Positions 1-40,900 of a stretch of DNA of 64,000 nucleotides are shown here, piece after piece. The notes under the pieces were generated by a model. The model saw only the letters and a program-made list of their open reading frames with translations, searched no databases and was not told where the DNA came from. Origin of the DNA: Paratinospora sagittata (Eukaryota; Streptophyta; Magnoliopsida; Ranunculales; Menispermaceae); the NCBI GenBank assembly GCA_035771175.1, contig CM069598.1, positions 8,091,413 through 8,155,412 on the forward strand, in the 5' to 3' direction. Made by a program: the position numbers and the translations under genes. Within the stretch, counting starts at the first letter, position 1. Every line of letters begins with the position of its first letter.

Positions 1-885
1 AGAGAGGGCGTCAGTTGAGTCGATTCAAGGTAAGCTGGCACTTGTGATTGAGAGTTTCCTTCTTCATTTTGTTAATTTTTGTGCAGTCAGCACAATGCAT
101 CTACTGATTCAATTTTCTGGCAGGTTCCAATTGAGGCTGAAAGGTTAATGAATGATGATCGTGTCTTGGAACAATATTTGTTACCAACATCACCTCAGCT
201 AGCTGGATTTCGCATTGATGCTTTCAGTGCGATTAGGCCTCGAGTTAGCCATGCACCTTTTTCAGAAGAGAATATCTGGGATAATTCTTTAACATGGTTG
301 GACGACAGACACATATATACAGCTGTTTTATACATCCAAGTATCTGCTCTTCAGGTACTTTGAAGTAAATCTGCATCTTTGAGTACATTTGCTACATGAT
401 CTCACTCTTCTGGTTATATATGGTTTTCCTGTCACCAAGCATTTTATTTCTATCTTAAAACTTTAAAAATACATACGGTATAGCTCTCTCCAGGTCAAGG
501 GAGTTGTACAACTGATATATGTTGTACAGAGTCTTCTAACTATTAAGCACTGTGAAAACATGTTTACTTATTATCATCAAATGGCAAAATGTTACATTTG
601 CAGGAACCGAACAACTTGGTTACTGTGGGAGAATACCGGCTGCCAGTGGCTCGAGCTGGAACGCCCATGTATTTTGATTTTCCAGGACCTATAGAGGCTC
701 GTCTGATCATTTTCAAACTTCTTGGTGATATTGCGGTCTTTTCTGACGATCCAGCTGAACAGGATGACTCTGATTTTAGAGCCCCACCTATGGCATCCGG
801 CTTGTCTCTTGCTAACAGAATCAAGTTATATTACTATGCGGATCCCTACGAACTAGGGAAATGGGCGAGCCTTTCTGTCGTTTGA
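1..885 (+). CDS. SAC9: SAC9 3' end, left copy (partial at window edge)
   Basis: These are the last coding exons of a SAC9-type phosphoinositide phosphatase, entering from the left edge: the end of exon 11 (1-29, donor at 30), exon 12 (124-354) and exon 13 (604-885, stop TGA at 883-885). Splice sites match the complete right copy at 37962-38846. The protein ends ...KWASLSVV, against ...KWASLSAV in the right copy, and one internal residue differs (LIIFKLL here, LITFKLL there). In the other copy this C-terminal region is far from the SAC and WW domains. Only the 3' end is visible, so whether the left copy is an intact gene cannot be judged. It is probably the other allele of the same locus. Confidence 0.93.
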
Positions 886-3104
886 GCAATATATACGTCA
901 TTTATTTATATGGTGGTCATTGAACAAGAGGTATGGCATTGTATTTGAATGTTGTTCTTTTTTGTGGCCATTAAATTGTATTTTTTTTTTTTCTGTGTAA
1001 AATAGAACAGAATTTTGAGTAGTGCATTAATATCAAATTCATCCATTGCTTCTGCTTGTCTTATTTGCCAAACTCAATGGAACTTGAAACATCTCCCCTT
1101 TTCTACCCTTTTAACAGCTTAAGATTGATTTTGAACTTATCTGTAAACATGGCAAGTGATCACTGCAATTGTAGTGCCGTTATTGTTATTAATGTGGTCA
1201 AGAAACAGGTTCATGTAGGCGAATCTATAAAATTGGAAAAAGACTTTGTTAAGTTGAGTTGAGCTTATCTAGTGTTAATTTTAATTAAGCTGTTCCTATG
1301 TTTTTAGCTCTGAGTGCTTGTACTTTGACACCACTCTTGTCATAATTATAACCCACCTTACCCTTTTGAAAATTGTAGTTTCACATTTGAGGCTTTTGAC
1401 TTATTATCACATAAAATTAAAAAAATTTTGCTTGACCAGTCAAAGCCTGGTCAGCTAATAATTTGGTGTTACGTGGATTTTAGATCTAATGAATGGGTGC
1501 CACAGAGGATTTTTTTTATTTTTAAATGAAGGCGTTTTTTAAGAAAATATAAGTATAAAAAAGCCTCGTTATTAATTGGTCAACTTATGATAAATGGGTC
1601 AATTTTAATGGTATTTGTAATTTTTTTTTAATTTTTTGTAGCAATCATGTCAAAAGTCCCTCACATTTATCCTAACATTACAAGAAAAAAAATAAAAATA
1701 AAAAAAGTTGTCATGAATGAAGCAATCTAAGTTATAAAATGTGCAATGAGTTTGCTTCTTTGGAGAGGCAATGTTGAAGAAAAATGAAAAATCAACATAT
1801 GCAAAGCTCATTTCTTATGTAAAATGTTAGTTTGGTATAGTTTAGCTCGTAATATATTTTCATACTTTTTACAGGGACAATCAGATAATTTATTTTGTTA
1901 CTATAATTAAAAAAAAAAAAACAATTAGGAAATGCAGAGGAGATGCCATGATGACTATTCTAAGCTATAATTCATCCATCTTATTAAAACTTTACACCAG
2001 ATAAAGTCATGGTAGTTCTTGGTTGCCCATTAATCTAGTCTCCCGAATTAAATTAATTATCCTTATTAGTGATCTTATACCTTGATTTTATTTACACAAG
2101 TTTTTGTTAATAATGTCTATTAAAATACTTAAAATGACCCCTTTAATCTCCTTTATAGTTTAAGCCGATTACTAGTCCACATGTTGATGAAGCCTTTACA
2201 TCCAAACCAAAGGACTATATACCAAATGTCAAATGGCAAATGCCCATAAAATTTGCAGAATTTAAAGCTAAGCTATATATAGCCTTGTCGGAGTGGAAAA
2301 CAGTGTATATCCCAAAATACAGGGCCCTACTCATTTTTCTCAAGCAATAAGAGCATCCTTAAAAGAGATGCTCTTACTATTATTATTATTTTTTAAGTTG
2401 CATGATCCACCAATAGGAGCCCCAATTCAGAATCAAAGTAACTTTTCTGACACAAGATGTCAAGACCCCAAGAGTGACCTGCATTAAATTGAACTGTAAA
2501 GGAGGAAAGAGTTACTTATACTTACTAGTCTTACCTGAAAAATAATCAAAAGAAGATGTAGTTAATAATTATTATTATTTTTACTTTTTTCAAAATGGTG
2601 GGATCTAATCAGCTGCATGCTTGCCATTTGGCAAAACTGAGGTAACTGTGTTCATCAATGATGGGAGTAGAGAAAGAAAGTGAAAAAGGATAATGGGGTC
2701 ATGGGTGGTGGTGATGCCATGCAGCCATGGTAGTTGGGTATGAAAAGAGAAGTGAAGCCACCTGCAGAAAGGTACTCTTAAGCTGCACCAAACAATATTA
2801 ATGGTGCAACCACCATTGCCCATGTGATATTTCTGCCCCACTAAGAGACTCAAATCTTGCAATTGTCAAGAAGCAAAGCAGCATATTTTTGTTAGTCAAG
2901 TCACTCAAGAAAAAAACTTGTGAAAATGTATCTGATCCAAGGCACATTACCTCCTCCTTTTATGTACATAGTCATTGTACAAGAGTTTTAGATTAATTAG
3001 GATGGGATTTCTGTTTTTTCTTATTTATTATTTGGTTGCTATTTAATTAAGATTTTAGATAATATTGAATGTTTGAGTTTTCTAATTGATTTATAAGTCA
3101 TAAA
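886..3104. other. SAC9 3' flank, left copy
   Basis: AT-rich sequence downstream of the SAC9 stop: 3' UTR, then non-coding DNA with several A/T homopolymers. No convincing gene is seen; the open frames are short and low in complexity. Up to about 2.15 kb this stretch carries most of the differences between the two arms, including a 30-bp unit near 1363-1393 that is single here and doubled at 37421-37480. Confidence 0.7.
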
Positions 3105-3241
3105 GACCCTGTTTGGAAGTGCATTTTTTCCAAACGTAGAAATAGAAGGAGAAAGCTACACGAAAATGCTCTTCCTTCTGTTTTTACATTTGGAAAAAAC
3201 CATTTATGAGTAGAAACGTCGATGCACTCCCAAACAGGGCC
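3105..3241. mobile_element. MITE with CCCTGTTTGG-type terminal inverted repeats (left copy)
   Basis: A 137-bp element bounded by near-perfect terminal inverted repeats: GACCCTGTTTGGAAGTGCAT at the left end, with its complement (ending CCAAACAGGGCC) at the right. The interior is also partly self-complementary, so the whole unit can fold into one hairpin. It has no coding capacity. The termini resemble those of short hAT or Harbinger-derived MITEs. I could not settle a target-site duplication, so the superfamily is open. Confidence 0.65.
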
Positions 3242-3428
3242 ATATGGGTATAAACAATTTAGTTTGTAATTTGAAAAACACCAATTCATGAAACTAGAAT
3301 TCTTGTTCTCACCTTCATCTCTCGGCTGTGCCATTAACATCAAATGGGTGCTTTAGATTTTGCATTGCAATTGCACCCACTCTCCCTAATCAACACTTTT
3401 GAGATTTTCTTGCACTTGCTTTTGGGTT

Positions 3429-3452
3429 TTTTTTTTTTTTTTTTTTTTTTTA
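3429..3452. repeat. Poly-T tract, length differs between arms
   Basis: A run of about 24 T. The mirrored poly-A near 35360-35383 is one base different in length, which shifts the mirror offset from 38811 to 38812. It is the only difference I found inward of 2.15 kb, and homopolymer length errors are common in sequencing. Confidence 0.8.
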
Positions 3453-3973
3453 AGACTTATTTGGCTATGGGGGAGCCAAGTGAAAGTCACAAAAGAACTA
3501 TAAGTCAGAAACTCCAACTGGGTCAAACTCATTTTTTTTCTTAACAAAGCATGTGTGATTTTGCAGATCCTCCAAAGGTTCTGTCTTTTAGCTTCATGGG
3601 ATGCCATGCCATAAACTATTTTCTTTCCAACATAGAGAGAATCCCAGGATCATTCATCAATAACCCCATCTTTTTAGTTGAAAAGTGAGAATAACTACTC
3701 TAAAAAAAAAAAGAAAAAAAGAAAAAAAAAGTCAAAATCCCACAACTACAATAACTTTTAATGGACCCACTTCAGTTGCTCAGCTGAATTCCCCGCTTTT
3801 AAGCCCTTATTACCATTAAGGAATACCACTAGGATTAAATAAAAGCTTCATTCATTTGGAGTTCTTTGAATGCTTTCTCTCATAACTTTTCATTTACGAT
3901 CTCCAACAACCCTTCTCATCTTCTTCTTTAATTTCTCTTTCTGGTTTTCTTAATTTGATGATCTTCTTTCCCC

Positions 3974-3982
3974 TTTAAATAA
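3974..3982 (+). promoter_or_regulatory. Possible TATA element of MIR171 (left copy)
   Basis: TTTAAATAA lies 270 bases upstream of the miR171 hairpin, just before a pyrimidine-rich leader. A start about 30 bases downstream would put the (TC)27 tract and two short ORFs in the primary transcript. Inferred from position and sequence only. Confidence 0.35.
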
Positions 3983-4077
3983 CCCAAGTTTTCAGGATAA
4001 AAAAACCCCACATGAATCTGTTAGAAAGGCAACTAGTTTTCCAATCTTTGGGCTGAAGAAACAATCGTCTTTCTAGT

Positions 4078-4081
<4 letters not shown>

Positions 4082-4135
<54 letters not shown>
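4082..4135 (+). repeat. (TC)27 microsatellite in the presumed pri-miR171 leader (left)
   Basis: An uninterrupted 54-bp TC dinucleotide run followed by more pyrimidines. It lies between the presumed promoter and the miR171 hairpin. CT-rich tracts are common in plant core promoters and 5' leaders. The mirror copy is (GA)27 at 34677-34730. Confidence 0.9.
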
Positions 4136-4140
<5 letters not shown>

Positions 4141-4166
4141 CTTTGTTTTTCTTTTTCTACCAAGTT

Positions 4167-4292
4167 ATGATGGAGAAGGAGCATATACATGAAGCACTTG
4201 GAGGGTGGTTCTATGGCTTTTCATCAGAAGAAGATGAATCTTTGATGGGTTTGATGATGAAGAGAGGGAGGTATTGGCGCGCCTCAATTTGA
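4167..4292 (+). other. Short ORF in the presumed pri-miR171, overlapping the 5' stem arm
   Basis: An ATG-initiated 41-codon frame starts MMEKEHIHEALGGWFYG and ends by reading through the star arm (...YWRASI, stop TGA 4290-4292). It lies just downstream of the TC tract. Some plant pri-miRNAs are reported to encode small regulatory peptides (miPEPs), including miR171 loci in Medicago. There is no direct evidence of translation here, and a random ORF is equally plausible. A second, shorter ORF (14 codons) sits upstream at 4012-4056. Confidence 0.25.
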
Positions 4293-4365
4293 AGACATGG
4301 TTAGATGGAATTATAGCCATGTAATCGAATTGAGCCGCGTCAATATCTCCAATCATCATCAAAAC
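4249..4365 (+). ncRNA. MIR171: MIR171 precursor hairpin, left copy
   Basis: Positions 4330-4350 hold a 21-nt miR171-type sequence, TTGAGCCGCGTCAATATC followed by TCC. The opposite arm, 4269-4289 (GGTATTGGCGCGCCTCAATT and one flanking base), pairs with it with only a few mismatches, giving a plausible star strand. The stem extends outward through GTTTGATGATGA (4249-4260) and TCATCATCAAAAC (4353-4365), and the loop is near 4300-4320. miR171 is a conserved plant miRNA that guides cleavage of GRAS-domain HAM/SCL6 transcripts and so affects shoot meristem and branching. The ...GCGTCAATATC form is a known family variant. Processing is inferred from the fold and from mature-sequence identity. Confidence 0.88.
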
Positions 4366-5261
4366 TCTCACTCTGATATCTCTCTTTCCTTCCCTCTTTC
4401 ACTTTAGTTTTGCCTTTCTAATTCAAAGGTACACATGCAATTCCTCTTTCTTTATCTGTTTTCTAATAGAATATTTTCTGAATTCTCTTTGCATAAATAT
4501 ATTAGATTATAGTCACTATCTAATTAATCTCAGTATAAAAAGATTCTAAAAGGGTTTATATATACCAGAATTCAGCTAGCTCACAGCTTTCATGGTAATC
4601 CTGTAAGGTATTTTTCACATGGATTTACTGTTATTAGTTGCACTGGTGTGTGTAGACACACACACACACATATGTATGGTTTCAATGAAGAACACTGATA
4701 TTGGCCTCATGCAAAGCAATCAGAGAGATGCCCAAGAAATAGTTAATTTTGACCAGTGAGATTCATGAAGTAATCTATTTATGTTTGGGAGCCTGTGGGG
4801 GAAGTGAGGAAACTGTAGTTTTTGTATCATTTTAAGCACAGAAGAATCTCCACTTTCCTTTCAGTGAAGATTTTAGTAATGGAGATGTTTAGGTGGATCA
4901 CTACCACAGCTTTTTGCAATGACCATTATATAAATTTGCTAAACTTTTTAGTACTTTTTTTTTTTGTCCAGGCCCATACGTCACTTTGTATCTATATAGT
5001 TCATGTTGAATAATAGGCGAAAATATGGGAAGTATTTTATTTTCTGTAAAGCTTAATCTACATATATTGAGTTATTTTTTAAGTGGAAAAAACTTCAAAA
5101 TTATCAAAATTATCTTCTTACTTAGCATTATTGTATGGATAAAATAACAGATTCTTAAATCTAAATAATTTGGCTTTGTCTGAATTTTAAGTCAATTCTG
5201 GTTTTAACATAGGTTTGATGTTCAGATTTAAGACTATATTATATGAGGCTACACTTAACAA

Positions 5262-5400
5262 AGACGCCTTGGCAAAGTGGTTGGGTAAAGAAGTCTCCTA
5301 ACCGAGAGGTTAGGAGTTTGAGCTCCGTGCCCCTTCCGATTAGTCAAAAATTATGATCAATTGATCTATAATAATTTCCTGCCTATGGACAAAATCATTA
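5262..5400 (+). mobile_element. SINE-like tRNA-derived element (left copy)
   Basis: The head reads CTTGGCAAAGTGGTTGGGTA and, about 40 bases on, GAGTTTGAGCTCC. These resemble the A and B boxes of an RNA polymerase III promoter at tRNA-like spacing. The body continues for a further 60 bases or so without coding potential. It is not an intact tRNA, as no acceptor stem forms. Ends are approximate. Mirror copy: 33412-33550 (-). Confidence 0.45.
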
Positions 5401-6052
5401 AATGGGTAGGGTACAAGAAAATTTTAATTGACACATAATCAAAATGGGCCCACTTTTTTCTTTTTCTTTTTTTTTCCTATGTATGATATTTTTTATGTGA
5501 AATAGTTCATATTTACATGGATTTAGCCCAGGATATAATAAAGTGGAGGAAACATATTTATGTATCTAATCTATGTAGCGAAAAGGAGCGAAAATGCTTA
5601 ATTGAGTTAAGTTGATATAGAGAACCTATTTAGTTAGACCAATAGGTAATTAATATAAGATTAATCAACTTTTTTTTTTTTGGTATAAAATACATGTTTA
5701 TAGCATGCACAATTAATTCATGCTTTGTAGTCTTTATAAAAGATACATTTTGGGGATTCCATTTCTTTGAAATTTTAATTTGTTTTAAATATAAATAGTT
5801 TATTAGATATTAAGTTTTGAAAGGGAACTGGAAGAGAAATGATTAGAGGAACATCAGCATCTGGGTATGCAAAATTGTTAAGGAATCAAGCATGGCAAGT
5901 GGTTTTGCAGCTTGCTGGTGAAAATGAAGACACGAGTACTGCAAGATAAGAAGGTCCACCATCCAATATATATTCTATCAATTTTGCCTAAAAATCAACA
6001 GGTATGCCCACTTCTTATATAAATATATATTTATACAGGTATGCTTACTTTT

Positions 6053-6225
6053 CTTTCTTTTTTTTGAACCTTTTGGATACGGGACTAGTCCTTGCTCTAA
6101 GCGAGAGCAGAATGATATACTTCTCTCAGCAAAGACGCTTTTAAGAATCGAATCTTATAACTTTTATACAGAGACGACCTTGAGACTTAGCTCACTTCCA
6201 CTGAGTTAATAATTCGTTGGTAGGT
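6053..6225 (-). mobile_element. SINE-like tRNA-derived element (left copy)
   Basis: Read on the minus strand, it starts with a tRNA-like head (CTCAGTGGAAGTGAGCTAAG, then AGATTCGATTC as a B-box-like motif about 40 bases later) and ends in an A-rich tail (poly-T at 6057-6065 on the plus strand). This architecture is typical of plant SINEs. Mirror copy: 32587-32759 (+). Boundaries are approximate. Confidence 0.5.
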
Positions 6226-7204
6226 ATGTTGATCACTTTTCACCGCCACTTGATTCTTCCTTATTCTTGGTAGATCCCTCTCTTTTTCTTTATTTTATCA
6301 ATGATATTTCCATTCACATCAAATATATTAGATTGCATTTTTTTTTTGTAGAACAAATTATTTCGAATATAAAATAATATTAAGTTTAGCATTGGCCTTG
6401 AGCTTTTTCTAACATGAGGAAAGGAGAATATATATCTTTCAATATTTTGGCTCCCAAGTACATACATTACCATTAAGTCTATCAGTTTGATGGCATTATT
6501 CACACTTACCTCCTCCAAAAGAAAAGCTATATATTTGAATATGTTAACTCAGTATTTTGACATTTTTTTCTTCACATTAGCAACCATATGTATAAATATA
6601 TATGCACACAAAAATCATATGATGGGAAATTTTTTGTTTGTTTGTTTTGATGTATTTTAAAAGTCTAGTTTTATATTTCTTTCTTTTTTTATATACAAGA
6701 CTATCATATTTACTAGAAGGTTATTTTTTGTTTTTTTATTTAAGTTTTTAATTGTGATGGAGATTTAATGAGTGTTACTGGCTGACTTTTAGGCCTATTC
6801 TTGTTGTGCTTTTCCTATTTTGTTGACAGTTTTTTCTTTCTTGATTTTGTTTGCTTCTTAGGCAAAGAATGAACACAGTATCTTAGGGCCTTCCATGTGT
6901 AGTAATCAAGCTTTGATTAAAATGAATTACATCAACTTTCGACAAATCTTTTAAAAGAGTTTTCATAGGGCAAAACCCTTCTAAACAAACAAGGAGAGCT
7001 TCTTCTTTTTTTATATGAATTTCTCACACAAACTCATTGATCGCTATAAGATGCTCATCAAAACCTCTCTTTATATAAAGATTAGGGTAGAAAAAGTTTG
7101 AGCCTAATTCAATTTAATTAAACCATCAATAGCCCATAGATAACCTAAATGTGAATATATTAGACAGATATATGGTAGAATTGACGTTCAAAGATATGTT
7201 ATAC

Positions 7205-7340
7205 AAGTATTCTATTAGTCGAGTAGCCTCGTTGGATAAGGGACGCTGTATAAGTCGTAATTGAATAACAAGGTCTCGATTTTCAGTTTGATGTCGTGTC
7301 CATATTTATTCGCCTACTTTAGAAGAATGTCCAACAGTCT
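7205..7340 (+). mobile_element. Possible SINE-like fragment (left copy)
   Basis: GTAGCCTCGTTGGATAAGGG followed about 40 bases later by AAGGTCTCGATTT resembles diverged A and B boxes of a tRNA-derived head. No tail or target-site duplication is evident. Weakly supported. Confidence 0.3.
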
Positions 7341-7477
7341 CTGTAGGCCAGAATAGTCTCGTCTGTGCACAAAGGTTAACGGGAACATTAGAGGGTTATA
7401 GATCAAAAAGAAGAAAGAGTAACCTTAATTAATTGAAAATAAAATGGGACAATCTTAATTAAAATGAAAAGCAAGCC

Positions 7478-7600
7478 TATTAGAGGTGATATGTTGTGAC
7501 CTAGAGGTTACAAATTTAAATTTATAAATAACCTCTGTAAAAGTAAGACAGCATACATAGAAACTACGTCATGGGATTGGGTAGTGACACGTAGTGATGA
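7478..7600 (+). mobile_element. SINE-like element, same family as 51392-51535 (left copy)
   Basis: Contains GACCTAGAGGTTACAAATTT as a B-box-like region, followed by ATAACCTCTGTAAAAGTAAG and CTACGTCATGGGATTGGG. These three blocks occur in the same order in the element at 51392-51535 and resemble the general layout of Au-type plant SINEs. Mirror copy: 31212-31334 (-). Confidence 0.45.
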
Positions 7601-8190
7601 TGCTGGTGGGCCTGGGATGTATGTGTACGTGGAGACTGATGGGGCCCATTGCATTTATGTTGGTGTTGTTGACGGGAGCACTGTATGCTAACGTCTATAC
7701 TTTGTTTGTTACTTTCCAACTTGTCCTCCTTCTCTTGTTAAATCAAAACTTGGGTGCCCCCACTTGGAGATTCACTTTGATTTTAATATATAAATATAAA
7801 TAAAAATAATATATAATATATTTTTATTTATTTATTTGATTTGATTTGATTGTTACCCTAAAATCCTCCTTTCTAAGGAAAGTGGCACTTTTTTTTTTGG
7901 GTCCTTCCATTGGAGCCACTTGAACCTTTCTAACCATAATCAAATCGTTGATTTTTGTGGGAGACATTTGACATTTTCTTTTTAATTATTTTATAAAGGT
8001 AATTTTAAATATATTCATAAAAAACACTCTTTATATCCATGTAATTTATAAATTTTCAATAGTGATACACCACAATATTTTTAGTAAGTACATTTGAGTT
8101 TTTTTTATTTTTTTTATTTTTTATTATGTCTTGGATTGGTATGTTTGAGTTACTTATTTTATAATTGTACTAATTGATTCAAGCTGCATT

Positions 8191-8655
8191 AAGTAGTACC
8201 TAAAAGAGGGACAATCATGATCAAATTATTGCAACTATGGCAAGTAGAGGAGAAGGAGTGAGATCAATTACTATTGCCGAGTTACTGGCCATCAGAGAAG
8301 GTGTAAAACTGCTTTAGAAGCTGGTATTCGCATGGATATTGTTGAGGGTGATACTTCAGTAGTCATGACTTCCATTAACTCAGCCGAGTACTTTCATTCT
8401 GAAGAAGGGAACTGGTTGAAGATTGTAAATGGTTATTGAGTGTCTGGCCAAATGTAAGAGTGATGTTCACTCCTAGGGAACAAAATATGGCTGCCCATAG
8501 GCTTAGCAATTTTGCTATCTATCTTGTTCACAGACTGGTTTGGTTAGAGGTCCCTCCTATTATCAGTGATGTGGTTTTTGAAGAGGCTGGTCCTCTCTCT
8601 TCTTTCCAGTGAAACGTCTTTATTGTCAAAAAAAAAAAAAAAAAAAAAGTAGTAC
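8191..8655 (+). pseudogene. Retrotransposed RNase H-like (RVT_3) fragment with poly-A and target-site duplication (left copy)
   Basis: Three reading-frame blocks join across frameshifts into an RNase H-like domain of the plant RVT_3 type: ITIAELLAIREGVK (about 8257-8300), then ALEAGIRMDIVEGDTSVVMT, then LVEDCKWLLSVWPNVRVMFT through PREQNMAAHRLSNFA to a natural stop near 8610. A 19-20 base poly-A follows (8629-8648). The insertion lies between direct repeats AAGTAGTAC (8191-8199 and 8647-8655), so it arrived by LINE-type retrotransposition. This domain occurs at the C-terminus of plant LINE proteins and as stand-alone genes, so it may be a 5'-truncated LINE or a retrocopied host mRNA. Frameshifts make it non-functional. 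Confidence 0.8.
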
Positions 8656-8847
8656 TAATGAATATTTGTTTTAGTATGCAATGGTTGTAGAGTATATAAT
8701 ATGCTTAGTTTGCATATACACAGTAGACTAATCTATTTATTTCATTAAGTAAAATCTAGTTAGGATATTTACGGGGAATTAACTTAACAGAGTTAAACAT
8801 ATCAACTTGTCAACTAAGCTAACTCAATGTAAGAGTACTTGTTTACC

Positions 8848-8990
8848 AATAAGTGGTAGCTTAGTTGGTTAAAAAATTAAATATAAGTGAAATTAAGATT
8901 CAGGTCTCAAGTTCAAATCTATTAGGAGGGCCAACTCAAATTTTTCTGCAATGCTCGAGCCTGAAAGAATTTGTCTAGTCTAAAGAAAAA
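8848..8990 (+). mobile_element. SINE-like element (left copy)
   Basis: Starts GTGGTAGCTTAGTTGGTTAA, a clear A-box-like tRNA head, with GGTCTCAAGTTCAAATC as the B box about 45 bases downstream, and ends in an A-rich tail (AAAGAAAAAAAAA near 8981-8994). Mirror copy: 29822-29964 (-). No clean target-site duplication was seen. Confidence 0.6.
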
Positions 8991-10144
8991 AAAATACTTT
9001 CTGAGTGTCGAAAAATAGGTAATTAAAAAAAAAAATTAGATTCTTGTGGCTCATATTTGATTTTGAAAAGAGCAATATTGAAAGTGATTTATAAATAATT
9101 ACAAAAGGAAAAGGTTAGTAAAATTCATTTAATGGTAATTAAAGTGGTAGTGCTGGTAGCTGTAGCAAATTAAGCAACATGTGGGGATGAAGGAAGGAGT
9201 GGTCATTTGGGTGGTAGTGGTTAGAGCTTTGATGGAGTAGTAGTTGGGGGTGGGGGGTTTGATAAGCAATGATTGAATTTATATTACTTTCTACCTTTTA
9301 TATTTTACTTATATGCCACTTTTTGAAAGTTAGCTTGAGCAATTAATATCATTTTATAATCTATAATATACAAAGTAGTGGTGGCCCAAGAGGAAATAAT
9401 AAGGTTTTAATGATTAAGAGGGTTGATTAATATGGAGGAGTAGTTGAGTGCTGGATATAATGGTGAATTGAATTTGTTGTAATATTTGTATATAATTTTT
9501 TTTTTAAATCTAAGAAAAAGACAAATTCAAATAAATGAAGAAAAAATATTCTTTTGGGATCTACAGATTTGTGGCAGACATTAATCTTCCTCTGCAGGAT
9601 AAAAAAAAAAAAAAAAAAAGAGTTTGCAGATGATTATCTATCATTAATTTGGGCAAGCTAACTTTAGCTGTTTAATTTTCTGCTTTGTCATTTTATGTGG
9701 TACTTTGCACAGCTTTGATGGTTTATGTTTGTTCCTTGCATACACTTTTCTCATTATTTTTTTAATCTTAATCAACAGTTTTTTTTTTTCAGTATAATTG
9801 ACATTGATGTAGATAAGTCAATAATAGACATATTAGTGCTATTGAATAATATTATCAAAGTTTTGTCAAAACCAAAACTTGATTTTTTTTTAATGCTTAA
9901 AATGGAAACAAATTCCAAATTGACACTTAAAACTTTGTTTATTTATATATATATATTAAAATTAACAATGATCTTAATCAAAGATGAGTGCATTTTTCGT
10001 GAATTAAGTTCATAACTTAAGAGTTTGAAGCTTAGAAAAATAAATCAAATAAATAAATAAACTTGTGCTTGTGATTTTGATATAATATTTTGTACATAAA
10101 AAATAGAAAACACAAAAGAAAGTGGTGTCAATAGAATCCAAAAT

Positions 10145-10364
10145 TAGCTTTTCACTATTTTTTTTGGTTTCCCACAAGTGGTCCAGACTTTCAAGTGAGA
10201 TTAATCCGCGTTCGATTACTTTAGGAGTATTAAGCGGCTCTTTCCAAGTGAACGTGACTAAGGTCGGTACAAGTTTTGATCTTAAGACATGCATCTCTCA
10301 ACCAACTTTCGCTCGGACCCTGACTATCTTTGCTGCACCACCTTGAATAGCTTTTCACTATTTT
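10145..10364 (-). mobile_element. SINE-like insertion with 17-bp target-site duplication (left copy)
   Basis: A 183-bp insertion lies between two perfect copies of TAGCTTTTCACTATTTT (10145-10161 and 10348-10364). On the minus strand it begins AAGGTGGTGCAGCAAAGATA, continues through GTTGGTTGAGAGATGCATGT and ends in a short A-tract next to the duplication. A long target-site duplication, an A-tail and the absence of coding sequence mark LINE-mobilised retroposition. The 94-codon frame here is incidental. Mirror copy: 28448-28667 (+). Confidence 0.75.
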
Positions 10365-10554
10365 ATTAAAATGATAAAATTACTTTCCCAAATTGCAATT
10401 TTTTTAATTTTAATTAACTCAGTTTTCAAGTCACGAAATCCAATTGCAACAGTATAATATTGTTTGAGATATTTGATGCAAATTATGGAGTGATAAGTTT
10501 GAACTATGAATTTATCTTGGGGGAGGGGCAAGATGATTGAGAAACTTAAATAGT

Positions 10555-10665
10555 GGCTAACATGGGAGTTGGTGAAATAAAGAGATGGTTTTGAAACTCA
10601 AAGATTTCAGGTTCAATTCTCACAACTTCTTCGCCTTAGGGATGTGAACAATTAATGAATCAAAA
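10555..10665 (+). mobile_element. Possible SINE-like fragment (left copy)
   Basis: GGGAGTTGGTGAAATAAAGA followed about 40 bases later by TCAGGTTCAATTC resembles the spaced A and B boxes of a tRNA-derived head. Low sequence information and no clear ends. Confidence 0.3.
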
Positions 10666-11479: not shown

Positions 11480-11650
11480 AAGGTGTATTGTGAGTCTCAT
11501 GCTTTGATGTTTATGAGATTTCAGGTCTATAAAAAGCTCATATGCCTGTATCATATTGCAAATAATATTTATTTTACTTGTATAAAGATTCAATCTCTAG
11601 CCATCAACATGATAAGAAATGTTCTTAACCAATTCACCAAGTAGTTATTT
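11480..11650 (-). mobile_element. Possible SINE-like element (left copy)
   Basis: On the minus strand it reads CTTGGTGAATTGGTTAAGAA and, about 30 bases later, CTAGAGATTGAATC, a tRNA-like A/B box pair. Mirror copy: 27162-27332 (+). Ends uncertain. Confidence 0.4.
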
Positions 11651-28447: not shown

Positions 28448-28667
28448 AAAATAGTGAAAAGCTATTCAAGGTGGTGCAGCAAAGATAGTCAGGGTCCGAG
28501 CGAAAGTTGGTTGAGAGATGCATGTCTTAAGATCAAAACTTGTACCGACCTTAGTCACGTTCACTTGGAAAGAGCCGCTTAATACTCCTAAAGTAATCGA
28601 ACGCGGATTAATCTCACTTGAAAGTCTGGACCACTTGTGGGAAACCAAAAAAAATAGTGAAAAGCTA
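28448..28667 (+). mobile_element. SINE-like insertion with 17-bp target-site duplication (right copy)
   Basis: Mirror of 10145-10364. The element lies in plus orientation here, between two copies of AAAATAGTGAAAAGCTA. Same insertion as in the left arm. Confidence 0.75.
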
Positions 28668-30156: not shown

Positions 30157-30621
30157 GTACTACTTTTTTTTTTTTTTTTTTTTTGACAATAAAGACGTTT
30201 CACTGGAAAGAAGAGAGAGGACCAGCCTCTTCAAAAACCACATCACTGATAATAGGAGGGACCTCTAACCAAACCAGTCTGTGAACAAGATAGATAGCAA
30301 AATTGCTAAGCCTATGGGCAGCCATATTTTGTTCCCTAGGAGTGAACATCACTCTTACATTTGGCCAGACACTCAATAACCATTTACAATCTTCAACCAG
30401 TTCCCTTCTTCAGAATGAAAGTACTCGGCTGAGTTAATGGAAGTCATGACTACTGAAGTATCACCCTCAACAATATCCATGCGAATACCAGCTTCTAAAG
30501 CAGTTTTACACCTTCTCTGATGGCCAGTAACTCGGCAATAGTAATTGATCTCACTCCTTCTCCTCTACTTGCCATAGTTGCAATAATTTGATCATGATTG
30601 TCCCTCTTTTAGGTACTACTT
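30157..30621 (-). pseudogene. Retrotransposed RNase H-like fragment (right copy)
   Basis: Mirror of 8191-8655 in the right arm, with the same frameshifts, poly-A (poly-T at about 30164-30183) and flanking AAGTAGTAC repeats. It is the same insertion represented twice. Confidence 0.8.
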
Positions 30622-33600
30622 AATGCAGCTTGAATCAATTAGTACAATTATAAAATAAGTAACTCAAACATACCAATCCAAGACATAATAAAAAATAAAA
30701 AAAATAAAAAAAACTCAAATGTACTTACTAAAAATATTGTGGTGTATCACTATTGAAAATTTATAAATTACATGGATATAAAGAGTGTTTTTTATGAATA
30801 TATTTAAAATTACCTTTATAAAATAATTAAAAAGAAAATGTCAAATGTCTCCCACAAAAATCAACGATTTGATTATGGTTAGAAAGGTTCAAGTGGCTCC
30901 AATGGAAGGACCCAAAAAAAAAAGTGCCACTTTCCTTAGAAAGGAGGATTTTAGGGTAACAATCAAATCAAATCAAATAAATAAATAAAAATATATTATA
31001 TATTATTTTTATTTATATTTATATATTAAAATCAAAGTGAATCTCCAAGTGGGGGCACCCAAGTTTTGATTTAACAAGAGAAGGAGGACAAGTTGGAAAG
31101 TAACAAACAAAGTATAGACGTTAGCATACAGTGCTCCCGTCAACAACACCAACATAAATGCAATGGGCCCCATCAGTCTCCACGTACACATACATCCCAG
31201 GCCCACCAGCATCATCACTACGTGTCACTACCCAATCCCATGACGTAGTTTCTATGTATGCTGTCTTACTTTTACAGAGGTTATTTATAAATTTAAATTT
31301 GTAACCTCTAGGTCACAACATATCACCTCTAATAGGCTTGCTTTTCATTTTAATTAAGATTGTCCCATTTTATTTTCAATTAATTAAGGTTACTCTTTCT
31401 TCTTTTTGATCTATAACCCTCTAATGTTCCCGTTAACCTTTGTGCACAGACGAGACTATTCTGGCCTACAGAGACTGTTGGACATTCTTCTAAAGTAGGC
31501 GAATAAATATGGACACGACATCAAACTGAAAATCGAGACCTTGTTATTCAATTACGACTTATACAGCGTCCCTTATCCAACGAGGCTACTCGACTAATAG
31601 AATACTTGTATAACATATCTTTGAACGTCAATTCTACCATATATCTGTCTAATATATTCACATTTAGGTTATCTATGGGCTATTGATGGTTTAATTAAAT
31701 TGAATTAGGCTCAAACTTTTTCTACCCTAATCTTTATATAAAGAGAGGTTTTGATGAGCATCTTATAGCGATCAATGAGTTTGTGTGAGAAATTCATATA
31801 AAAAAAGAAGAAGCTCTCCTTGTTTGTTTAGAAGGGTTTTGCCCTATGAAAACTCTTTTAAAAGATTTGTCGAAAGTTGATGTAATTCATTTTAATCAAA
31901 GCTTGATTACTACACATGGAAGGCCCTAAGATACTGTGTTCATTCTTTGCCTAAGAAGCAAACAAAATCAAGAAAGAAAAAACTGTCAACAAAATAGGAA
32001 AAGCACAACAAGAATAGGCCTAAAAGTCAGCCAGTAACACTCATTAAATCTCCATCACAATTAAAAACTTAAATAAAAAAACAAAAAATAACCTTCTAGT
32101 AAATATGATAGTCTTGTATATAAAAAAAGAAAGAAATATAAAACTAGACTTTTAAAATACATCAAAACAAACAAACAAAAAATTTCCCATCATATGATTT
32201 TTGTGTGCATATATATTTATACATATGGTTGCTAATGTGAAGAAAAAAATGTCAAAATACTGAGTTAACATATTCAAATATATAGCTTTTCTTTTGGAGG
32301 AGGTAAGTGTGAATAATGCCATCAAACTGATAGACTTAATGGTAATGTATGTACTTGGGAGCCAAAATATTGAAAGATATATATTCTCCTTTCCTCATGT
32401 TAGAAAAAGCTCAAGGCCAATGCTAAACTTAATATTATTTTATATTCGAAATAATTTGTTCTACAAAAAAAAAATGCAATCTAATATATTTGATGTGAAT
32501 GGAAATATCATTGATAAAATAAAGAAAAAGAGAGGGATCTACCAAGAATAAGGAAGAATCAAGTGGCGGTGAAAAGTGATCAACATACCTACCAACGAAT
32601 TATTAACTCAGTGGAAGTGAGCTAAGTCTCAAGGTCGTCTCTGTATAAAAGTTATAAGATTCGATTCTTAAAAGCGTCTTTGCTGAGAGAAGTATATCAT
32701 TCTGCTCTCGCTTAGAGCAAGGACTAGTCCCGTATCCAAAAGGTTCAAAAAAAAGAAAGAAAAGTAAGCATACCTGTATAAATATATATTTATATAAGAA
32801 GTGGGCATACCTGTTGATTTTTAGGCAAAATTGATAGAATATATATTGGATGGTGGACCTTCTTATCTTGCAGTACTCGTGTCTTCATTTTCACCAGCAA
32901 GCTGCAAAACCACTTGCCATGCTTGATTCCTTAACAATTTTGCATACCCAGATGCTGATGTTCCTCTAATCATTTCTCTTCCAGTTCCCTTTCAAAACTT
33001 AATATCTAATAAACTATTTATATTTAAAACAAATTAAAATTTCAAAGAAATGGAATCCCCAAAATGTATCTTTTATAAAGACTACAAAGCATGAATTAAT
33101 TGTGCATGCTATAAACATGTATTTTATACCAAAAAAAAAAAAGTTGATTAATCTTATATTAATTACCTATTGGTCTAACTAAATAGGTTCTCTATATCAA
33201 CTTAACTCAATTAAGCATTTTCGCTCCTTTTCGCTACATAGATTAGATACATAAATATGTTTCCTCCACTTTATTATATCCTGGGCTAAATCCATGTAAA
33301 TATGAACTATTTCACATAAAAAATATCATACATAGGAAAAAAAAAGAAAAAGAAAAAAGTGGGCCCATTTTGATTATGTGTCAATTAAAATTTTCTTGTA
33401 CCCTACCCATTTAATGATTTTGTCCATAGGCAGGAAATTATTATAGATCAATTGATCATAATTTTTGACTAATCGGAAGGGGCACGGAGCTCAAACTCCT
33501 AACCTCTCGGTTAGGAGACTTCTTTACCCAACCACTTTGCCAAGGCGTCTTTGTTAAGTGTAGCCTCATATAATATAGTCTTAAATCTGAACATCAAACC

Positions 33601-34446
33601 TATGTTAAAACCAGAATTGACTTAAAATTCAGACAAAGCCAAATTATTTAGATTTAAGAATCTGTTATTTTATCCATACAATAATGCTAAGTAAGAAGAT
33701 AATTTTGATAATTTTGAAGTTTTTTCCACTTAAAAAATAACTCAATATATGTAGATTAAGCTTTACAGAAAATAAAATACTTCCCATATTTTCGCCTATT
33801 ATTCAACATGAACTATATAGATACAAAGTGACGTATGGGCCTGGACAAAAAAAAAAAGTACTAAAAAGTTTAGCAAATTTATATAATGGTCATTGCAAAA
33901 AGCTGTGGTAGTGATCCACCTAAACATCTCCATTACTAAAATCTTCACTGAAAGGAAAGTGGAGATTCTTCTGTGCTTAAAATGATACAAAAACTACAGT
34001 TTCCTCACTTCCCCCACAGGCTCCCAAACATAAATAGATTACTTCATGAATCTCACTGGTCAAAATTAACTATTTCTTGGGCATCTCTCTGATTGCTTTG
34101 CATGAGGCCAATATCAGTGTTCTTCATTGAAACCATACATATGTGTGTGTGTGTGTCTACACACACCAGTGCAACTAATAACAGTAAATCCATGTGAAAA
34201 ATACCTTACAGGATTACCATGAAAGCTGTGAGCTAGCTGAATTCTGGTATATATAAACCCTTTTAGAATCTTTTTATACTGAGATTAATTAGATAGTGAC
34301 TATAATCTAATATATTTATGCAAAGAGAATTCAGAAAATATTCTATTAGAAAACAGATAAAGAAAGAGGAATTGCATGTGTACCTTTGAATTAGAAAGGC
34401 AAAACTAAAGTGAAAGAGGGAAGGAAAGAGAGATATCAGAGTGAGA

Positions 34447-34563
34447 GTTTTGATGATGATTGGAGATATTGACGCGGCTCAATTCGATTACATGGCTATA
34501 ATTCCATCTAACCATGTCTTCAAATTGAGGCGCGCCAATACCTCCCTCTCTTCATCATCAAAC
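34447..34563 (-). ncRNA. MIR171: MIR171 precursor hairpin, right copy
   Basis: Mirror copy of the 4249-4365 hairpin, transcribed on the minus strand. The mature miR171 sequence is at 34462-34482, read as reverse complement. Precursor, leader (GA/TC tract at 34677-34730) and promoter region match the left copy. If the duplication is an assembly artefact this is the same gene. Confidence 0.88.
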
Positions 34564-34671
34564 CCATCAAAGATTCATCTTCTTCTGATGAAAAGCCATA
34601 GAACCACCCTCCAAGTGCTTCATGTATATGCTCCTTCTCCATCATAACTTGGTAGAAAAAGAAAAACAAAG

Positions 34672-34734
<63 letters not shown>

Positions 34735-35569
34735 ACTAGAAAGACGATTGTTTCTTCAGCCCAAAGATTGGAAAACTAGTTGCCTTTCTAACAGATTCAT
34801 GTGGGGTTTTTTTATCCTGAAAACTTGGGTTATTTAAAGGGGAAAGAAGATCATCAAATTAAGAAAACCAGAAAGAGAAATTAAAGAAGAAGATGAGAAG
34901 GGTTGTTGGAGATCGTAAATGAAAAGTTATGAGAGAAAGCATTCAAAGAACTCCAAATGAATGAAGCTTTTATTTAATCCTAGTGGTATTCCTTAATGGT
35001 AATAAGGGCTTAAAAGCGGGGAATTCAGCTGAGCAACTGAAGTGGGTCCATTAAAAGTTATTGTAGTTGTGGGATTTTGACTTTTTTTTTCTTTTTTTCT
35101 TTTTTTTTTTAGAGTAGTTATTCTCACTTTTCAACTAAAAAGATGGGGTTATTGATGAATGATCCTGGGATTCTCTCTATGTTGGAAAGAAAATAGTTTA
35201 TGGCATGGCATCCCATGAAGCTAAAAGACAGAACCTTTGGAGGATCTGCAAAATCACACATGCTTTGTTAAGAAAAAAAATGAGTTTGACCCAGTTGGAG
35301 TTTCTGACTTATAGTTCTTTTGTGACTTTCACTTGGCTCCCCCATAGCCAAATAAGTCTTAAAAAAAAAAAAAAAAAAAAAAAACCCAAAAGCAAGTGCA
35401 AGAAAATCTCAAAAGTGTTGATTAGGGAGAGTGGGTGCAATTGCAATGCAAAATCTAAAGCACCCATTTGATGTTAATGGCACAGCCGAGAGATGAAGGT
35501 GAGAACAAGAATTCTAGTTTCATGAATTGGTGTTTTTCAAATTACAAACTAAATTGTTTATACCCATAT

Positions 35570-35706
35570 GGCCCTGTTTGGGAGTGCATCGACGTTTCTA
35601 CTCATAAATGGTTTTTTCCAAATGTAAAAACAGAAGGAAGAGCATTTTCGTGTAGCTTTCTCCTTCTATTTCTACGTTTGGAAAAAATGCACTTCCAAAC
35701 AGGGTC
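35570..35706. mobile_element. MITE with CCCTGTTTGG-type terminal inverted repeats (right copy)
   Basis: Mirror copy of the element at 3105-3241 within the right arm, with the same termini and interior. It is one insertion seen twice because of the inverted duplication, not an independent transposition. Confidence 0.65.
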
Positions 35707-37420
35707 TTTATGACTTATAAATCAATTAGAAAACTCAAACATTCAATATTATCTAAAATCTTAATTAAATAGCAACCAAATAATAAATAAGAAAAAACAG
35801 AAATCCCATCCTAATTAATCTAAAACTCTTGTACAATGACTATGTACATAAAAGGAGGAGGTAATGTGCCTTGGATCAGATACATTTTCACAAGTTTTTT
35901 TCTTGAGTGACTTGACTAACAAAAATATGCTGCTTTGCTTCTTGACAATTGCAAGATTTGAGTCTCTTAGTGGGGCAGAAATATCACATGGGCAATGGTG
36001 GTTGCACCATTAATATTGTTTGGTGCAGCTTAAGAGTACCTTTCTGCAGGTGGCTTCACTTCTCTTTTCATACCCAACTACCATGGCTGCATGGCATCAC
36101 CACCACCCATGACCCCATTATCCTTTTTCACTTTCTTTCTCTACTCCCATCATTGATGAACACAGTTACCTCAGTTTTGCCAAATGGCAAGCATGCAGCT
36201 GATTAGATCCCACCATTTTGAAAAAAGTAAAAATAATAATAATTATTAACTACATCTTCTTTTGATTATTTTTCAGGTAAGACTAGTAAGTATAAGTAAC
36301 TCTTTCCTCCTTTACAGTTCAATTTAATGCAGGTCACTCTTGGGGTCTTGACATCTTGTGTCAGAAAAGTTACTTTGATTCTGAATTGGGGCTCCTATTG
36401 GTGGATCATGCAACTTAAAAAATAATAATAATAGTAAGAGCATCTCTTTTAAGGATGCTCTTATTGCTTGAGAAAAATGAGTAGGGCCCTGTATTTTGGG
36501 ATATACACTGTTTTCCACTCCGACAAGGCTATATATAGCTTAGCTTTAAATTCTGCAAATTTTATGGGCATTTGCCATTTGACATTTGGTATATAGTCCT
36601 TTGGTTTGGATGTAAAGGCTTCATCAACATGTGGACTAGTAATCGGCTTAAACTATAAAGGAGATTAAAGGGCTCATTTTAAGTATTTTAATAGACATTA
36701 TTAACAAAAACTTGTGTAAATAAAATCAACGTATAAGATCACTAATAAGGATAATTAATTTAATTCGGGAGACTAGATTAATGGGCAACCAAGAACTACC
36801 ATGACTTTATCTGGTGTAAAGTTTTAATAAGATGGATGAATTATAGCTTAGAATAGTCATCATGGCATCTCCTCTGCATTTCCTAATTGTTTTTTTTTTC
36901 TTAATTATAGTAACAAAATAAATTATCTGATTGTCCCTGTAAAAAGTATGAAAATATATTACGAGCTAAACTATACCAAACTAACATTTTACATAAGCAA
37001 TGAGCTTTGCTTATGTTGATTTTTCATTTTTCTTCAACATTACCTCTCCAAAGAAGCAAACTCATTGCACATTTTATAACTTAGATTGCTTCATTCATGA
37101 CAACTTTTTCTTTTTTTCATTTTTTTTCTTCTAATGTTAGGGCAAATGTGAGGGGCTTTTGACATGATTGTCACAAAAAATTTTTAAAAAAATTACAAAT
37201 GCCATTAAAATTGACTCATTTGTCATGAGTTGACCAATTAATAATGGAGCTTTTTTATACTTATATTTTCTTAAAAGATGCCTTCATTTAAAAATAAAAA
37301 AAATCCTGTGTGGCACCCATTCATTAGATCTAAAATCCACGTAACACCAAATTATTAGCTGACCAGGCTTTGACTGGTCAAGCAAAATTTTTTTAATTTT
37401 ATGTGATAATAAGTCAAAAG

Positions 37421-37480
37421 CCTCAAATGTGAAACTACAATTTTCAAAAGCCTCAAATGTGAAACTACAATTTTCAAAAG
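37421..37480. repeat. 30-bp tandem duplication present only in the right arm
   Basis: CCTCAAATGTGAAACTACAA plus TTTTCAAAAG is present twice in tandem (37421-37450, 37451-37480). The left arm has a single copy near 1363-1393. It accounts for most of the length difference between the arms. Confidence 0.92.
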
Positions 37481-37961
37481 GGTAAGGTGGGTTATAATTA
37501 TGACAAGAGTGGTGTCAAAGTACAAGCACTCAGAGCTAAAAACATAGGAACAGCTTAATTAAAATTAACACTAGATAAGCTCAACTCAACTTAACAAAGT
37601 CTTTTTCCAATTTTATAGATTCGCCTACATGAACCTGTTTCTTGACCACATTAATAACAATAACGGCACTACAATTGCAGTGATCACTTGCCATGTTTAC
37701 AGATAAGTTCAAAATCAATCTTAAGCTGTTAAAAGGGTAGAAAAGGGGAGATGTTTCAAGTTCCATTGAGTTTGGCTAATAAGACAAGCAGAAGCAATGG
37801 ATGAATTTGATTGATATTAATGCACTACTCAAAATTCTGTTCTATTTTACACACAGAAAAAAAAAATACAATTTAATGGCCACAAAAAAGAACAACATTC
37901 AAATACAATGCCATACCTCTTGTTCAATGACCACCATATAAATAAATGACGTATATATTGC

Positions 37962-40900
37962 TCAAACGGCAGAAAGGCTCGCCCATTTCCCTAGTTCGTA
38001 GGGATCCGCATAGTAATATAACTTGATTCTGTTAGCAAGAGACAAGCCGGATGCCATAGGTGGGGCTCTAAAATCAGAGTCATCCTGTTCAGCTGGATCG
38101 TCAGAAAAGACCGCAATATCACCAAGAAGTTTGAAAGTGATCAGACGAGCCTCTATAGGTCCTGGAAAATCAAAATACATGGGCGTTCCAGCTCGAGCCA
38201 CTGGCAACCGGTATTCTCCCACAGTAACCAAGTTGTTCGGTTCCTGCAAATGTAACATTTTGCCATTTGATGATAATAAGTAAACATGTTTTCACAGTGC
38301 TTAATAGTTAGAAGACTCTGTACAACATATATCAGTTGTACAACTCCCTTGACCTGGAGAGAGCTATACCGTATGTATTTTAAAGTTTTAAGATAGAAAT
38401 AAAATGCTTGGTGACAGGAAAACCATATATAACCAGAAGAGTGAGATCATGTAGCAAATGTACTCAAAGATGCAGATTTACTTCAAAGTACCTGAAGAGC
38501 AGATACTTGGATGTATAAAACAGCTGTATATATGTGTCTGTCGTCCAACCATGTTAAAGAATTATCCCAGATATTCTCTTCTGAAAAAGGTGCATGGCTA
38601 ACTCGAGGCCTAATCGCACTGAAAGCATCAATGCGAAATCCAGCTAGCTGAGGTGATGTTGGTAACAAATATTGTTCCAAGACACGATCATCATTCATTA
38701 ACCTTTCAGCCTCAATTGGAACCTGCCAGAAAATTGAATCAGTAGATGCATTGTGCTGACTGCACAAAAATTAACAAAATGAAGAAGGAAACTCTCAATC
38801 ACAAGTGCCAGCTTACCTTGAATCGACTCAACTGACGCCCTCTCTCCAACCATGATTTTACATCTATTTGATCAGATCTTTGGTTTGGTCCAAGTCCTAA
38901 ATCTGTTCTCACAGGGCTTCCAATAACTAATAGCCTCTTGGCATGTAGAAATGGCTCACTTTCAGCTGTCCCCCCAAAAGAGGCACGCCGACTAACTTCT
39001 GAGAAGGGATTCTCATCTAGAGAAAGCAGATTGTACTCTTTCTCCAAACTAACAGAACTTGAGACAGACCCTCGAAGGCACATAGTCACCCAAATGATAC
39101 GACACCGAACAGGATTTTGGAAAGTGAATTCCACATGCCTTGGAACCTGATTTGACCTACCAGACTTTTCATGCCCATAAAAATCAGTAGAGGGTGAGAT
39201 GAGGGATTGAACAGACCATTTTCCCATGCATGATCGCTCTTCCTTATTTATCTTATTGCTGGCCCATATTTGCACCTGTACTAACAGTAAAGAGTAAGAT
39301 TTGTGAGACGGTCATAACAGAACAGAAATCAAAAAAATATTAGAAGAGATAGCATCCTCAAAAGTGAATGGAGGTGAACAATGCAACAAAAGTAGCAAGA
39401 AATGAGAAATACTAAAAAACTGCAGTGGAGAAGCAAGATAGCATTAGAGAAAGAACAAAACTCAAGCCAGATGTCCAAATCATTTAGCCACCATTGAAGT
39501 TGTAAGTAGAGGAAATTTTCCACTTAAAACTGCAAGACAAGCTCATCCAAGCTCCACGTGCAGTCCAAGGTGGTTTCCTTGAAGAAAAACACAACAGCAG
39601 GCAGCAGCAGGCTACCAGAGGAATTTCTTGAGTCAAACACCTCACTATATCACCATGTACAACAATCGGTTGACCAGAAGTGTCAGTGAGTTTACTATTG
39701 AAAAGGCATAACCAGAACTAAATATTGAAGGAATGAATAATCTCTAAGAATGACCTATGCGATAAAAAATGAGCATTAGAACAAAGCCAACATGACTTCT
39801 ATATAAAATCATCCACTTTAAATGACCTATGGCCCTTTCAAAAGTTGACAGAGAAACTAACTTAAAAAAAAGGTGATCACAAGACTAGCATGAAACAATC
39901 CGAGACAGAAAATAATAAAAGTTAGTCCAAATGATAGTTTGATTCTACAAGTATGAACTCACAAAGGTTTATGGTTACCTATACTTCTGTTCTCAATACC
40001 AAACAAAGAAAGCTTATATTGAAAGTTGGAAGCAGTGTTGTATGGGTAACAACTAGGGCATACTGAAGTTAGCAATGGAAGGAGAGTAAACTTGACAATA
40101 CAGGTTGATGCCTTGACATCAACCCTTGAATTGAGCACGTGATATGAAGCAGTCACAACGTTGGATGGAGAGTAAGCTGAAATTTTTGATGCATAATTTG
40201 GATATCGGGGTGGGTAAAGTATTCAATTTTTTTTTCCTTTTTTTTATTTTGCTTTGTTTACTTCAATTGAGCATGTGATAAGAACTACGAAGTCAAACTA
40301 GTGTCTTCTTCCTGTTCATTTAACATGATGGCGAAGTAACCATAAAATAAAATAAAAAAAACAGCAAGGTGCTTACTGTAGGACAATCTGATGTCGAATA
40401 GCCACATGGACTAATAAGTAAGACAACCCCAGAGACATCTGAGAGATTGCCAAGGACAATAGCAAATTCAATACTGAAGACACTAGAGGGAGCTCTCCAA
40501 TATGAGTGTTGTGATCCAGAATTCAGTGGGGCAAGCAATGAAATGGCTGGAGCCGAGCCTACTGCTGTCTCAACCTGCAAGAAGACTAATCTAGTTAGAT
40601 TTTCAAGACAATCATGTAAATAAGTTGAATAATGAAGCAATGCTCACAACAATAGCTGGCAAATCTTCCAAGTGCAATATTTTGGCCACCAAGTGAACAA
40701 TAATTAATTGATTAAGCATGCTCTTTCAGTAAGTGATAGAAAATTAGTAATACACGGACAACAACCAGCTTTCCATGTTAGAACTTAGAAGTAGAAATAG
40801 CCTCTTCAAAAACACATCAACACAATAGGCTGTTATACCGAGTGTAGAAGGCTGGCAAATGGATATTCAGCTAATGATTCTTCCCCATCAAGTACTTTTT

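What the first reader, a model, noticed from the sequence alone, without database searches (positions are those of the whole stretch)
1..38846. 18 kb near-identical inverted duplication around a 100-N gap: probable scaffolding artefact
Seen directly: 1-18060 equals the reverse complement of 20752-38846, the right arm starts at the first base after 100 N, and both genic and non-coding DNA match. A real palindrome would normally have its arms joined through real sequence. Here the turn coincides with a contig end. Inference: the left contig is the same locus (or the other allele) placed in reverse. If so, the second ARASP, MIR171 and SAC9 3' end are not extra genes and should not be counted as recent duplications.
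Basis: partly seen in the sequence, partly recalled or inferred. Interest (0 to 1): 0.85.

Follow-up and report, generated by a model that had tools for sequence, protein, structure and literature searches.

The report
Two allele contigs joined head-to-head
The apparent giant mirror-image duplication is most likely an assembly mistake: two near-identical versions of one plant locus were set head-to-head across a gap, so its genes should not be counted as new duplicates.

Summary
The mirror-image duplication is in the letters but very probably not in the plant. Window 1-18060 matches the reverse complement of 20752-38846 at 99.2-99.8%. It does not end at 38846, which only mirrors the window's edge; the arms run at least 63 kb.

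The same sequence also begins right after another 100-N gap 2.49 Mb away (C10:10605539), again at the turn of an inverted duplication. The contig ends at both gaps lie in one 34.3-kb tract, identical between versions where compared apart from one poly-T length. Three ends stop 14.8-18.5 kb inside it; two overlap the fourth by 17,384 and 14,792 bp.

Two gap-free copies (C10:7.5 Mb, C22:2.9 Mb) run through the turn. A bromodomain gene is cut by the window's gap; its probable last exon lies at the second gap.

Best reading: allelic contigs ended at a shared identical node, and the segment between the gaps was scaffolded backwards. Four distinct versions exist, so the plant may be tetraploid, or the locus truly duplicated as well. 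Depth and Hi-C were not testable.

The parts
1..18060 (+). Left arm (end of the left contig), cut by the window edge; the arm continues left of the window to at least C10:8048933
   Evidence: Self-BLAST 99.2-99.8% to 38845-20752; continuation outside the window
3268..20651 (+). Terminal 17,384 bp of the left contig, letter-identical to the first 17,384 bp after the second gap (C10:10605539-10622922): dovetail contig overlap
2139..18060 (+). Part of the left arm identical to the right arm apart from one poly-T length difference; left of 2139 single-base differences begin
18061..20651 (+). 2,591 bp of left contig end with no partner in the right arm; holds the 5' part of the bromodomain gene
20652..20751 (.). 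100-N scaffold gap at the turn
20752..64000 (-). Right arm (start of the right contig), mirror of the left arm and of sequence left of the window; it does not end at 38846 but continues to at least C10:8172212
20752..35543 (-). First 14,792 bp of the right contig, equal (one poly-T indel) to the first bases after the second gap in inverse orientation: second dovetail onto the same contig
13006..14367 (+). ARASP-like M50 metalloprotease with PDZ domain, left-arm copy, 453 aa
   Evidence: protein identical in both arms and at C10:10615277
24445..25806 (-). ARASP-like M50 metalloprotease, right-arm copy, identical protein
4260..4359 (+). MIR171 precursor, left arm
   Evidence: Rfam RF00643, 64.7 bits; the opposite strand also matches at 54.3 bits
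34453..34552 (-). MIR171 precursor, right arm
   Evidence: Rfam RF00643, 64.7 bits; the opposite strand also matches at 54.3 bits
18643..20651 (+). 5' part of a bromodomain gene cut by the gap (MGKM motif at 18643; bromodomain exon motif at 20300-20341); the probable last exon is not in the window but lies at C10:10603241-10601668 beside the second gap
   Evidence: gene model by position and strand, no transcript
40833..53041 (-). SAC9-like phosphoinositide phosphatase exons (SacI, WW, SAC9_C8D) in the right arm; partner region left of the window
   Evidence: arm continuation

Best explanation
The mirror-image structure is an assembly artefact. Two versions (most likely alleles) of one locus are identical over about 34 kb and differ on both sides. 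An overlap assembler could not decide which left flank goes with which right flank across that tract, so contigs stopped there (inferred from the ends). Three end 14.8-18.5 kb inside it and the fourth spans nearly all of it, so ends overlap (shown). A scaffolder then laid the 2.49-Mb segment between the two gaps backwards with 100-N joins, so ends of allelic contigs face each other at both gaps (inferred; inverting that segment restores collinearity and a split gene). ARASP, MIR171, SAC9 and the rest of the window are therefore alleles plus shared contig-end overlaps, not a new palindromic gene duplication.
For: (a) Both N runs found in the stretches scanned (C10:8112064-8112163 and 10605439-10605538; none in C10:7465001-7530000 or C22:2890001-2915000) sit exactly at the turn of an inverted duplication. 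(b) Left contig suffix = prefix of the contig right of the second gap, 17,384 bp exact. Right contig (inverted) suffix = the same prefix, 14,792 bp with one poly-T indel. The contig left of the second gap (inverted) starts 983 bp after the left contig's end and is exact to the spanning contig for 14,807 bp. From the first arm difference on one side to the first difference on the other is 34,303 bp. (c) Outside the tract single-base differences, transitions mostly above transversions, begin: 31 in the 2-kb bin holding the left boundary, and 2.6-7.2% per kb on the far side. (d) Two gap-free copies run through the turn; the left contig's end and the second-gap contig's start lie 981 (C10:7.5), 984 (C22) and 983 (spanning contig) bases apart. 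(e) The bromodomain gene is cut by the window's gap; a 524-aa frame taken as its last exon is absent from the 124 kb around the window and present on the minus strand beside the second gap. (f) Passages of PMC8081667 and PMC9516828 describe false heterotype duplications and read-length homotype overlaps at contig ends, with gaps between.
Against: No reads, depth, Hi-C map or assembly graph were available. Just left of the tract the two arms differ little: 0.05-0.65% per 2-kb bin for about 20 kb, rising to 0.5-2.6% farther out, so that boundary is less sharp than the far one. About 3.6 kb in the middle of the tract is not covered by two independent versions, so its identity there is inferred. 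The 524-aa 'last exon' has no Pfam match and is assigned by position and strand only. Four distinct versions are more than a diploid's two alleles, so the plant is polyploid or part of the copy number is real. Whether such duplicates are general in this assembly could not be tested: of 36 genome searches sent, 3 were answered. Read type and length are unknown. It is not shown that the 2.49-Mb segment is one contig.
Confidence: 0.9

Rival explanations
1. The turn is an artefact, but the assembled versions are real paralogues: a recent direct segmental duplication about 2.5 Mb apart (and perhaps another at 7.5 Mb) with a 34-kb tract homogenised by gene conversion, so the extra genes are real although their orientation is not.
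For: Four distinct versions (C10:7.5, C10:8.10, C10:8.12, C22:2.9) occur, more than two alleles; the ARASP-like frame is open in each copy examined, 452-453 aa; the two arms differ only 0.05-0.65% per 2 kb for about 20 kb beside the tract.
Against: Which version is closest to which changes along the locus, as in recombining alleles: C10:7.5 nearest C22 at the outer 2-kb probe; the arms nearest each other, against C10:7.5 only, at 8079-8092 kb; C22 nearest the arms in the inner half of the tract. Differences are allele-sized and include presence/absence of small insertions. Four alleles fit a tetraploid equally well.
Confidence: 0.08
2. A real palindrome or a real 2.49-Mb inversion with duplicated breakpoints.
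For: The inverted match is long (at least 63 kb) and most similar at the centre, as in a palindrome kept alike by gene conversion.
Against: Both breakpoints fall on the same locus, which is contiguous in two other gap-free copies; both coincide with 100-N gaps; the overlaps are dovetails of contig ends; a bromodomain gene appears split and is restored by one inversion.
Confidence: 0.02

Closest known systems
False heterotype duplication (Vertebrate Genomes Project term; PMC8081667, passages seen)
   Same: Separate haplotype contigs of one locus placed in the same scaffold, with a gap between and single-base divergence.
   Different: Here the two are head-to-head (inverted), at two gaps 2.49 Mb apart, and more than two versions are present.
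False homotype duplication at contig boundaries (PMC8081667, passages)
   Same: Identical overlap at contig ends, dovetailing onto another path, of a length plausible for one read, gap between.
   Different: That paper's legend describes a tandem result; here scaffolding gave an inverted one.
Scaffold inversion error
   Same: One inversion of the segment between two joins restores collinearity and a split gene.
   Different: Both joins are at the same locus because versions of it occur at both ends of the segment.
Real large palindromes with gene conversion (recalled: primate Y chromosome)
   Same: Long inverted arms with high identity.
   Different: No sequenced spacer; the turn coincides with contig ends, and the sequence at the turn is contiguous in other copies.

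Membership tests
False heterotype duplication | Gap between the duplicated pair on the same scaffold | tested here: met
   100 N at window 20652-20751 and at C10:10605439-10605538
False heterotype duplication | Allele-type differences between the copies | tested here: met
   Mostly transition-biased single-base differences and small indels outside the tract; low (0.05-0.65% per 2 kb) for about 20 kb beside it on the arm side, 2.6-7.2% per kb on the other
False heterotype duplication | Each copy at haploid read depth, single-copy k-mers | not testable with these tools
   No reads available
False homotype duplication at contig boundary | Identical dovetail overlap at contig ends of about a read length | tested here: met
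   17,384 bp exact; 14,792 bp with one poly-T indel; the overlap is tested, the actual read length is unknown
Scaffold inversion error | One inversion restores collinearity with independent contiguous sequence | tested here: met
   Left contig end and second-gap contig start lie 981 and 984 bases apart on C10:7.5 and C22:2.9; bromodomain gene parts brought together
Scaffold inversion error | Hi-C map improves when the segment is flipped | not testable with these tools
   No contact data
Real palindrome | Arms joined through real sequence | tested here: not met
   Turn is at a 100-N gap; the copies at C10:7.5 and C22:2.9 read straight through
Tetraploid allele set | Four distinct haplotypes at loci genome-wide | tested here: inconclusive
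   Four versions at this locus; the searches for other loci did not complete

The most novel reading that the evidence does not exclude
Some of the copies are real: a recent multi-copy segmental duplication of a 60-kb-plus block (ARASP, MIR171, SAC9, bromodomain gene) on one plant chromosome, homogenised over 34 kb by gene conversion, hidden inside an otherwise false palindrome.
Probability: 0.08. Interest if true: 0.35.

Novelty: not a real feature. Interest (0 to 1): 0.12.

Why it matters
Taken at face value, this stretch would give false recent duplications of ARASP, MIR171 and SAC9, a false palindrome, a probably false orientation of 2.49 Mb and a broken bromodomain gene. A probe from the arm is present five times in the assembly (C10:7.5, both C10:8.1 arms, the contig-end overlap at C10:10.6, C22:2.9), so copy-number statements from this assembly need allele-aware filtering. 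The anatomy (shared identical tract, dovetails, split gene, collinear third copy) is a usable way to recognise such joins without reads.

Tried and rejected
The best named ARASP hit is Stephania japonica, 82% (best 120 of 2,334 listed), which points to Ranunculales, perhaps near Menispermaceae. Two published Menispermum assemblies do not fit 1.29 Gb: M. canadense, about 970 Mb draft (PMC12346261, passages), and M. dauricum, 675.68 Mb (PMC11109638, passages). A further search (listing only) did not identify it. The species stays unidentified.

C22 as a homeologue: the first 92% hit suggested this. Not favoured, because only about 6 of the 25 kb is 92% alike and the rest is 96.5-99.8% to one or another C10 copy.

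'Left arm simply the other allele of a diploid': not sufficient, because four distinct versions exist.

Genome-wide control with random probes (L041-L045): fetched; searches were sent for three of the five (L041, L042, L043) and none was answered. In one search, short-repeat rows pair by near-equal score between chromosomes 12 or 13 numbers apart, some twice on one of them. PMC11604747 (passages) had no match for inversion terms. Searches were seen as listings with abstract openings only, apart from the papers named here.
Full report
What was given. The window is C10:8091413-8155412 of an unnamed 1.29-Gb genome with 4,049 contigs. The best named hit of its ARASP-like protein is Stephania japonica at 82%; the species is not identified.

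The observation. Self-comparison confirms it: 99.826% over 16,700 columns and 99.216% over 1,403 columns, with the right arm beginning at the first base after the N run 20652-20751. The innermost 14,633 bp are letter-identical. The stated end, 38846, only mirrors the window's first base. With flanking DNA the arms are collinear from C10:8051413 to 8169733 in blocks of 96.3-99.8%. A probe at C10:8171412-8172212 has its mirror at 8048933-8049733, so the arms are at least 63 kb. The left contig carries 2,591 bp next to the gap that the right arm lacks.

A second gap tells the story. A 601-bp probe from the arm has five full or nearly full-length matches: C10:8101412 and 8119624 (the two arms), C10:10612271 (100%), C10:7496189 (97%) and C22:2898585 (92%); the other 35 of 40 scored are short pieces at 70-78% (40 of 177 candidates were scored). 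The piece around 10.61 Mb begins one base after another 100-N gap at C10:10605439-10605538, and that gap is itself the turn of an inverted duplication. No N run occurs in C10:7465001-7530000 or C22:2890001-2915000.

Contig-end anatomy. The last 17,384 bp of the left contig are identical to the first 17,384 bp after the second gap. The right contig, inverted, ends in 14,792 bp equal to the same beginning apart from one poly-T length. The contig left of the second gap, inverted, starts 983 bp after the left contig's end and stays exact to the spanning contig for 14,807 bp. From the first difference between the arms to the first difference between the second pair is 34,303 bp. Three contigs stop 14.8-18.5 kb inside it and the fourth covers all but 1,129 bp. 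About 3.6 kb in the middle is not covered by two independent versions, so identity there is inferred. On the far side differences rise at once to 2.6-7.2% per kb. On the arm side there are 31 in the 2-kb bin holding the boundary, then only 0.05-0.65% per bin for about 20 kb, then 0.5-2.6% farther out. This is what an overlap assembler is expected to leave when two alleles share an identical tract longer than its reads (inference; PMC8081667, passages, describes read-length dovetail overlaps at contig boundaries and misplaced haplotype contigs).

Independent copies decide the order. On C10:7.5 Mb the left contig ends at 7507050 and the contig left of the second gap starts at 7508031. On C22 the same points are 2909112 and 2910096. 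Both copies are gap-free there, so the left contig should continue into the inverse of the contig left of the second gap. A gene says the same. Its start (window 18643) and a bromodomain exon (motif at 20300-20341; Pfam PF00439, E 3.5e-10, on the 7.5-Mb copy) lie before the window's gap. A 524-aa frame on the same strand downstream in the 7.5-Mb copy, without a Pfam match and taken as the last exon by position, is absent from the 124 kb around the window. It is present at C10:10603241-10601668 (minus strand) and 10626103-10627676, at 99.5%. Inverting C10:8112164-10605438 brings the gene parts together and removes the inverted arrangement at both gaps.

How many versions. Site patterns over 1,799 columns at an outer 2-kb probe and 1,104 columns next to the tract separate four versions: C10:7.5, C22:2.9, left arm, right arm. 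An 801-bp probe near the arm end has four full-length matches among 49 listed (40 of 320 candidates scored). Nearest neighbours change along the locus (C22 was not compared), as in recombining alleles. Insertion differences include a 3.3-kb segment in the 7.5-Mb copy but neither arm, a 0.22-kb one in the 7.5-Mb copy but neither the arms nor C22, and a ~100-bp one in the right arm and, by coordinates, the 7.5-Mb copy but not the left arm. More than two alleles means a tetraploid plant or an additional real duplication. I prefer the former but could not test it: of 36 genome searches sent, 3 were answered.

Verdict. The ARASP-like protein is an identical 453 aa in both arms and at 10.6 Mb, differs by one residue on C22 and has 452 aa in the 7.5-Mb copy. 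ARASP, MIR171 and SAC9 should not be counted as recent duplications on this evidence. On re-checking I corrected the search count, the divergence figures, the untested middle of the tract and the status of the last exon; none changes the odds. Interest is low, except as a clean worked example.

Noticed in passing
C10:10605439-10605538 (loci L015-L022): A second inverted duplication around a 100-N gap, built partly from the same sequence as the window's turn.
   Followed up: yes
C10:7473497-7476783 (locus L023): A 3.3-kb segment present in the 7.5-Mb version and absent from both arms, with a short repeat at its ends in the BLAST overlap; possibly a transposon insertion polymorphism. No clear terminal inverted repeat was seen.
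   Followed up: partly
C10:7503892-7504114 (locus L026): A 223-bp insertion in the 7.5-Mb version, absent from the window arms and from C22.
   Followed up: partly
window 60016-60408: A 108-bp tandem repeat, 3.6 copies, inside a long proline/serine-rich reading frame on the minus strand (59257-60870) without a Pfam match.
   Followed up: no
table: Short-repeat rows pair by near-equal score between chromosomes 12-13 numbers apart (C1/C14, C2/C15, C3/C16, C7/C19, C8/C20, C10/C22, C11/C23, C13/C25), some twice on one chromosome 0.25-2.9 Mb apart: perhaps 13 chromosome pairs with retained alternate contigs. Untested.
   Followed up: partly
C22:2893883-2915000 versus C10:10607624-10628808: The C22 version is 92% alike over about 6 kb and then 99.3% over 15 kb, a haplotype-mosaic pattern.
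   Followed up: partly
C10:7516850-7519197 (locus L027): A MYB-domain gene (two Myb_DNA-binding stretches), resembling GAMYB by recall, lies downstream of the bromodomain gene in the gap-free copy.
   Followed up: no
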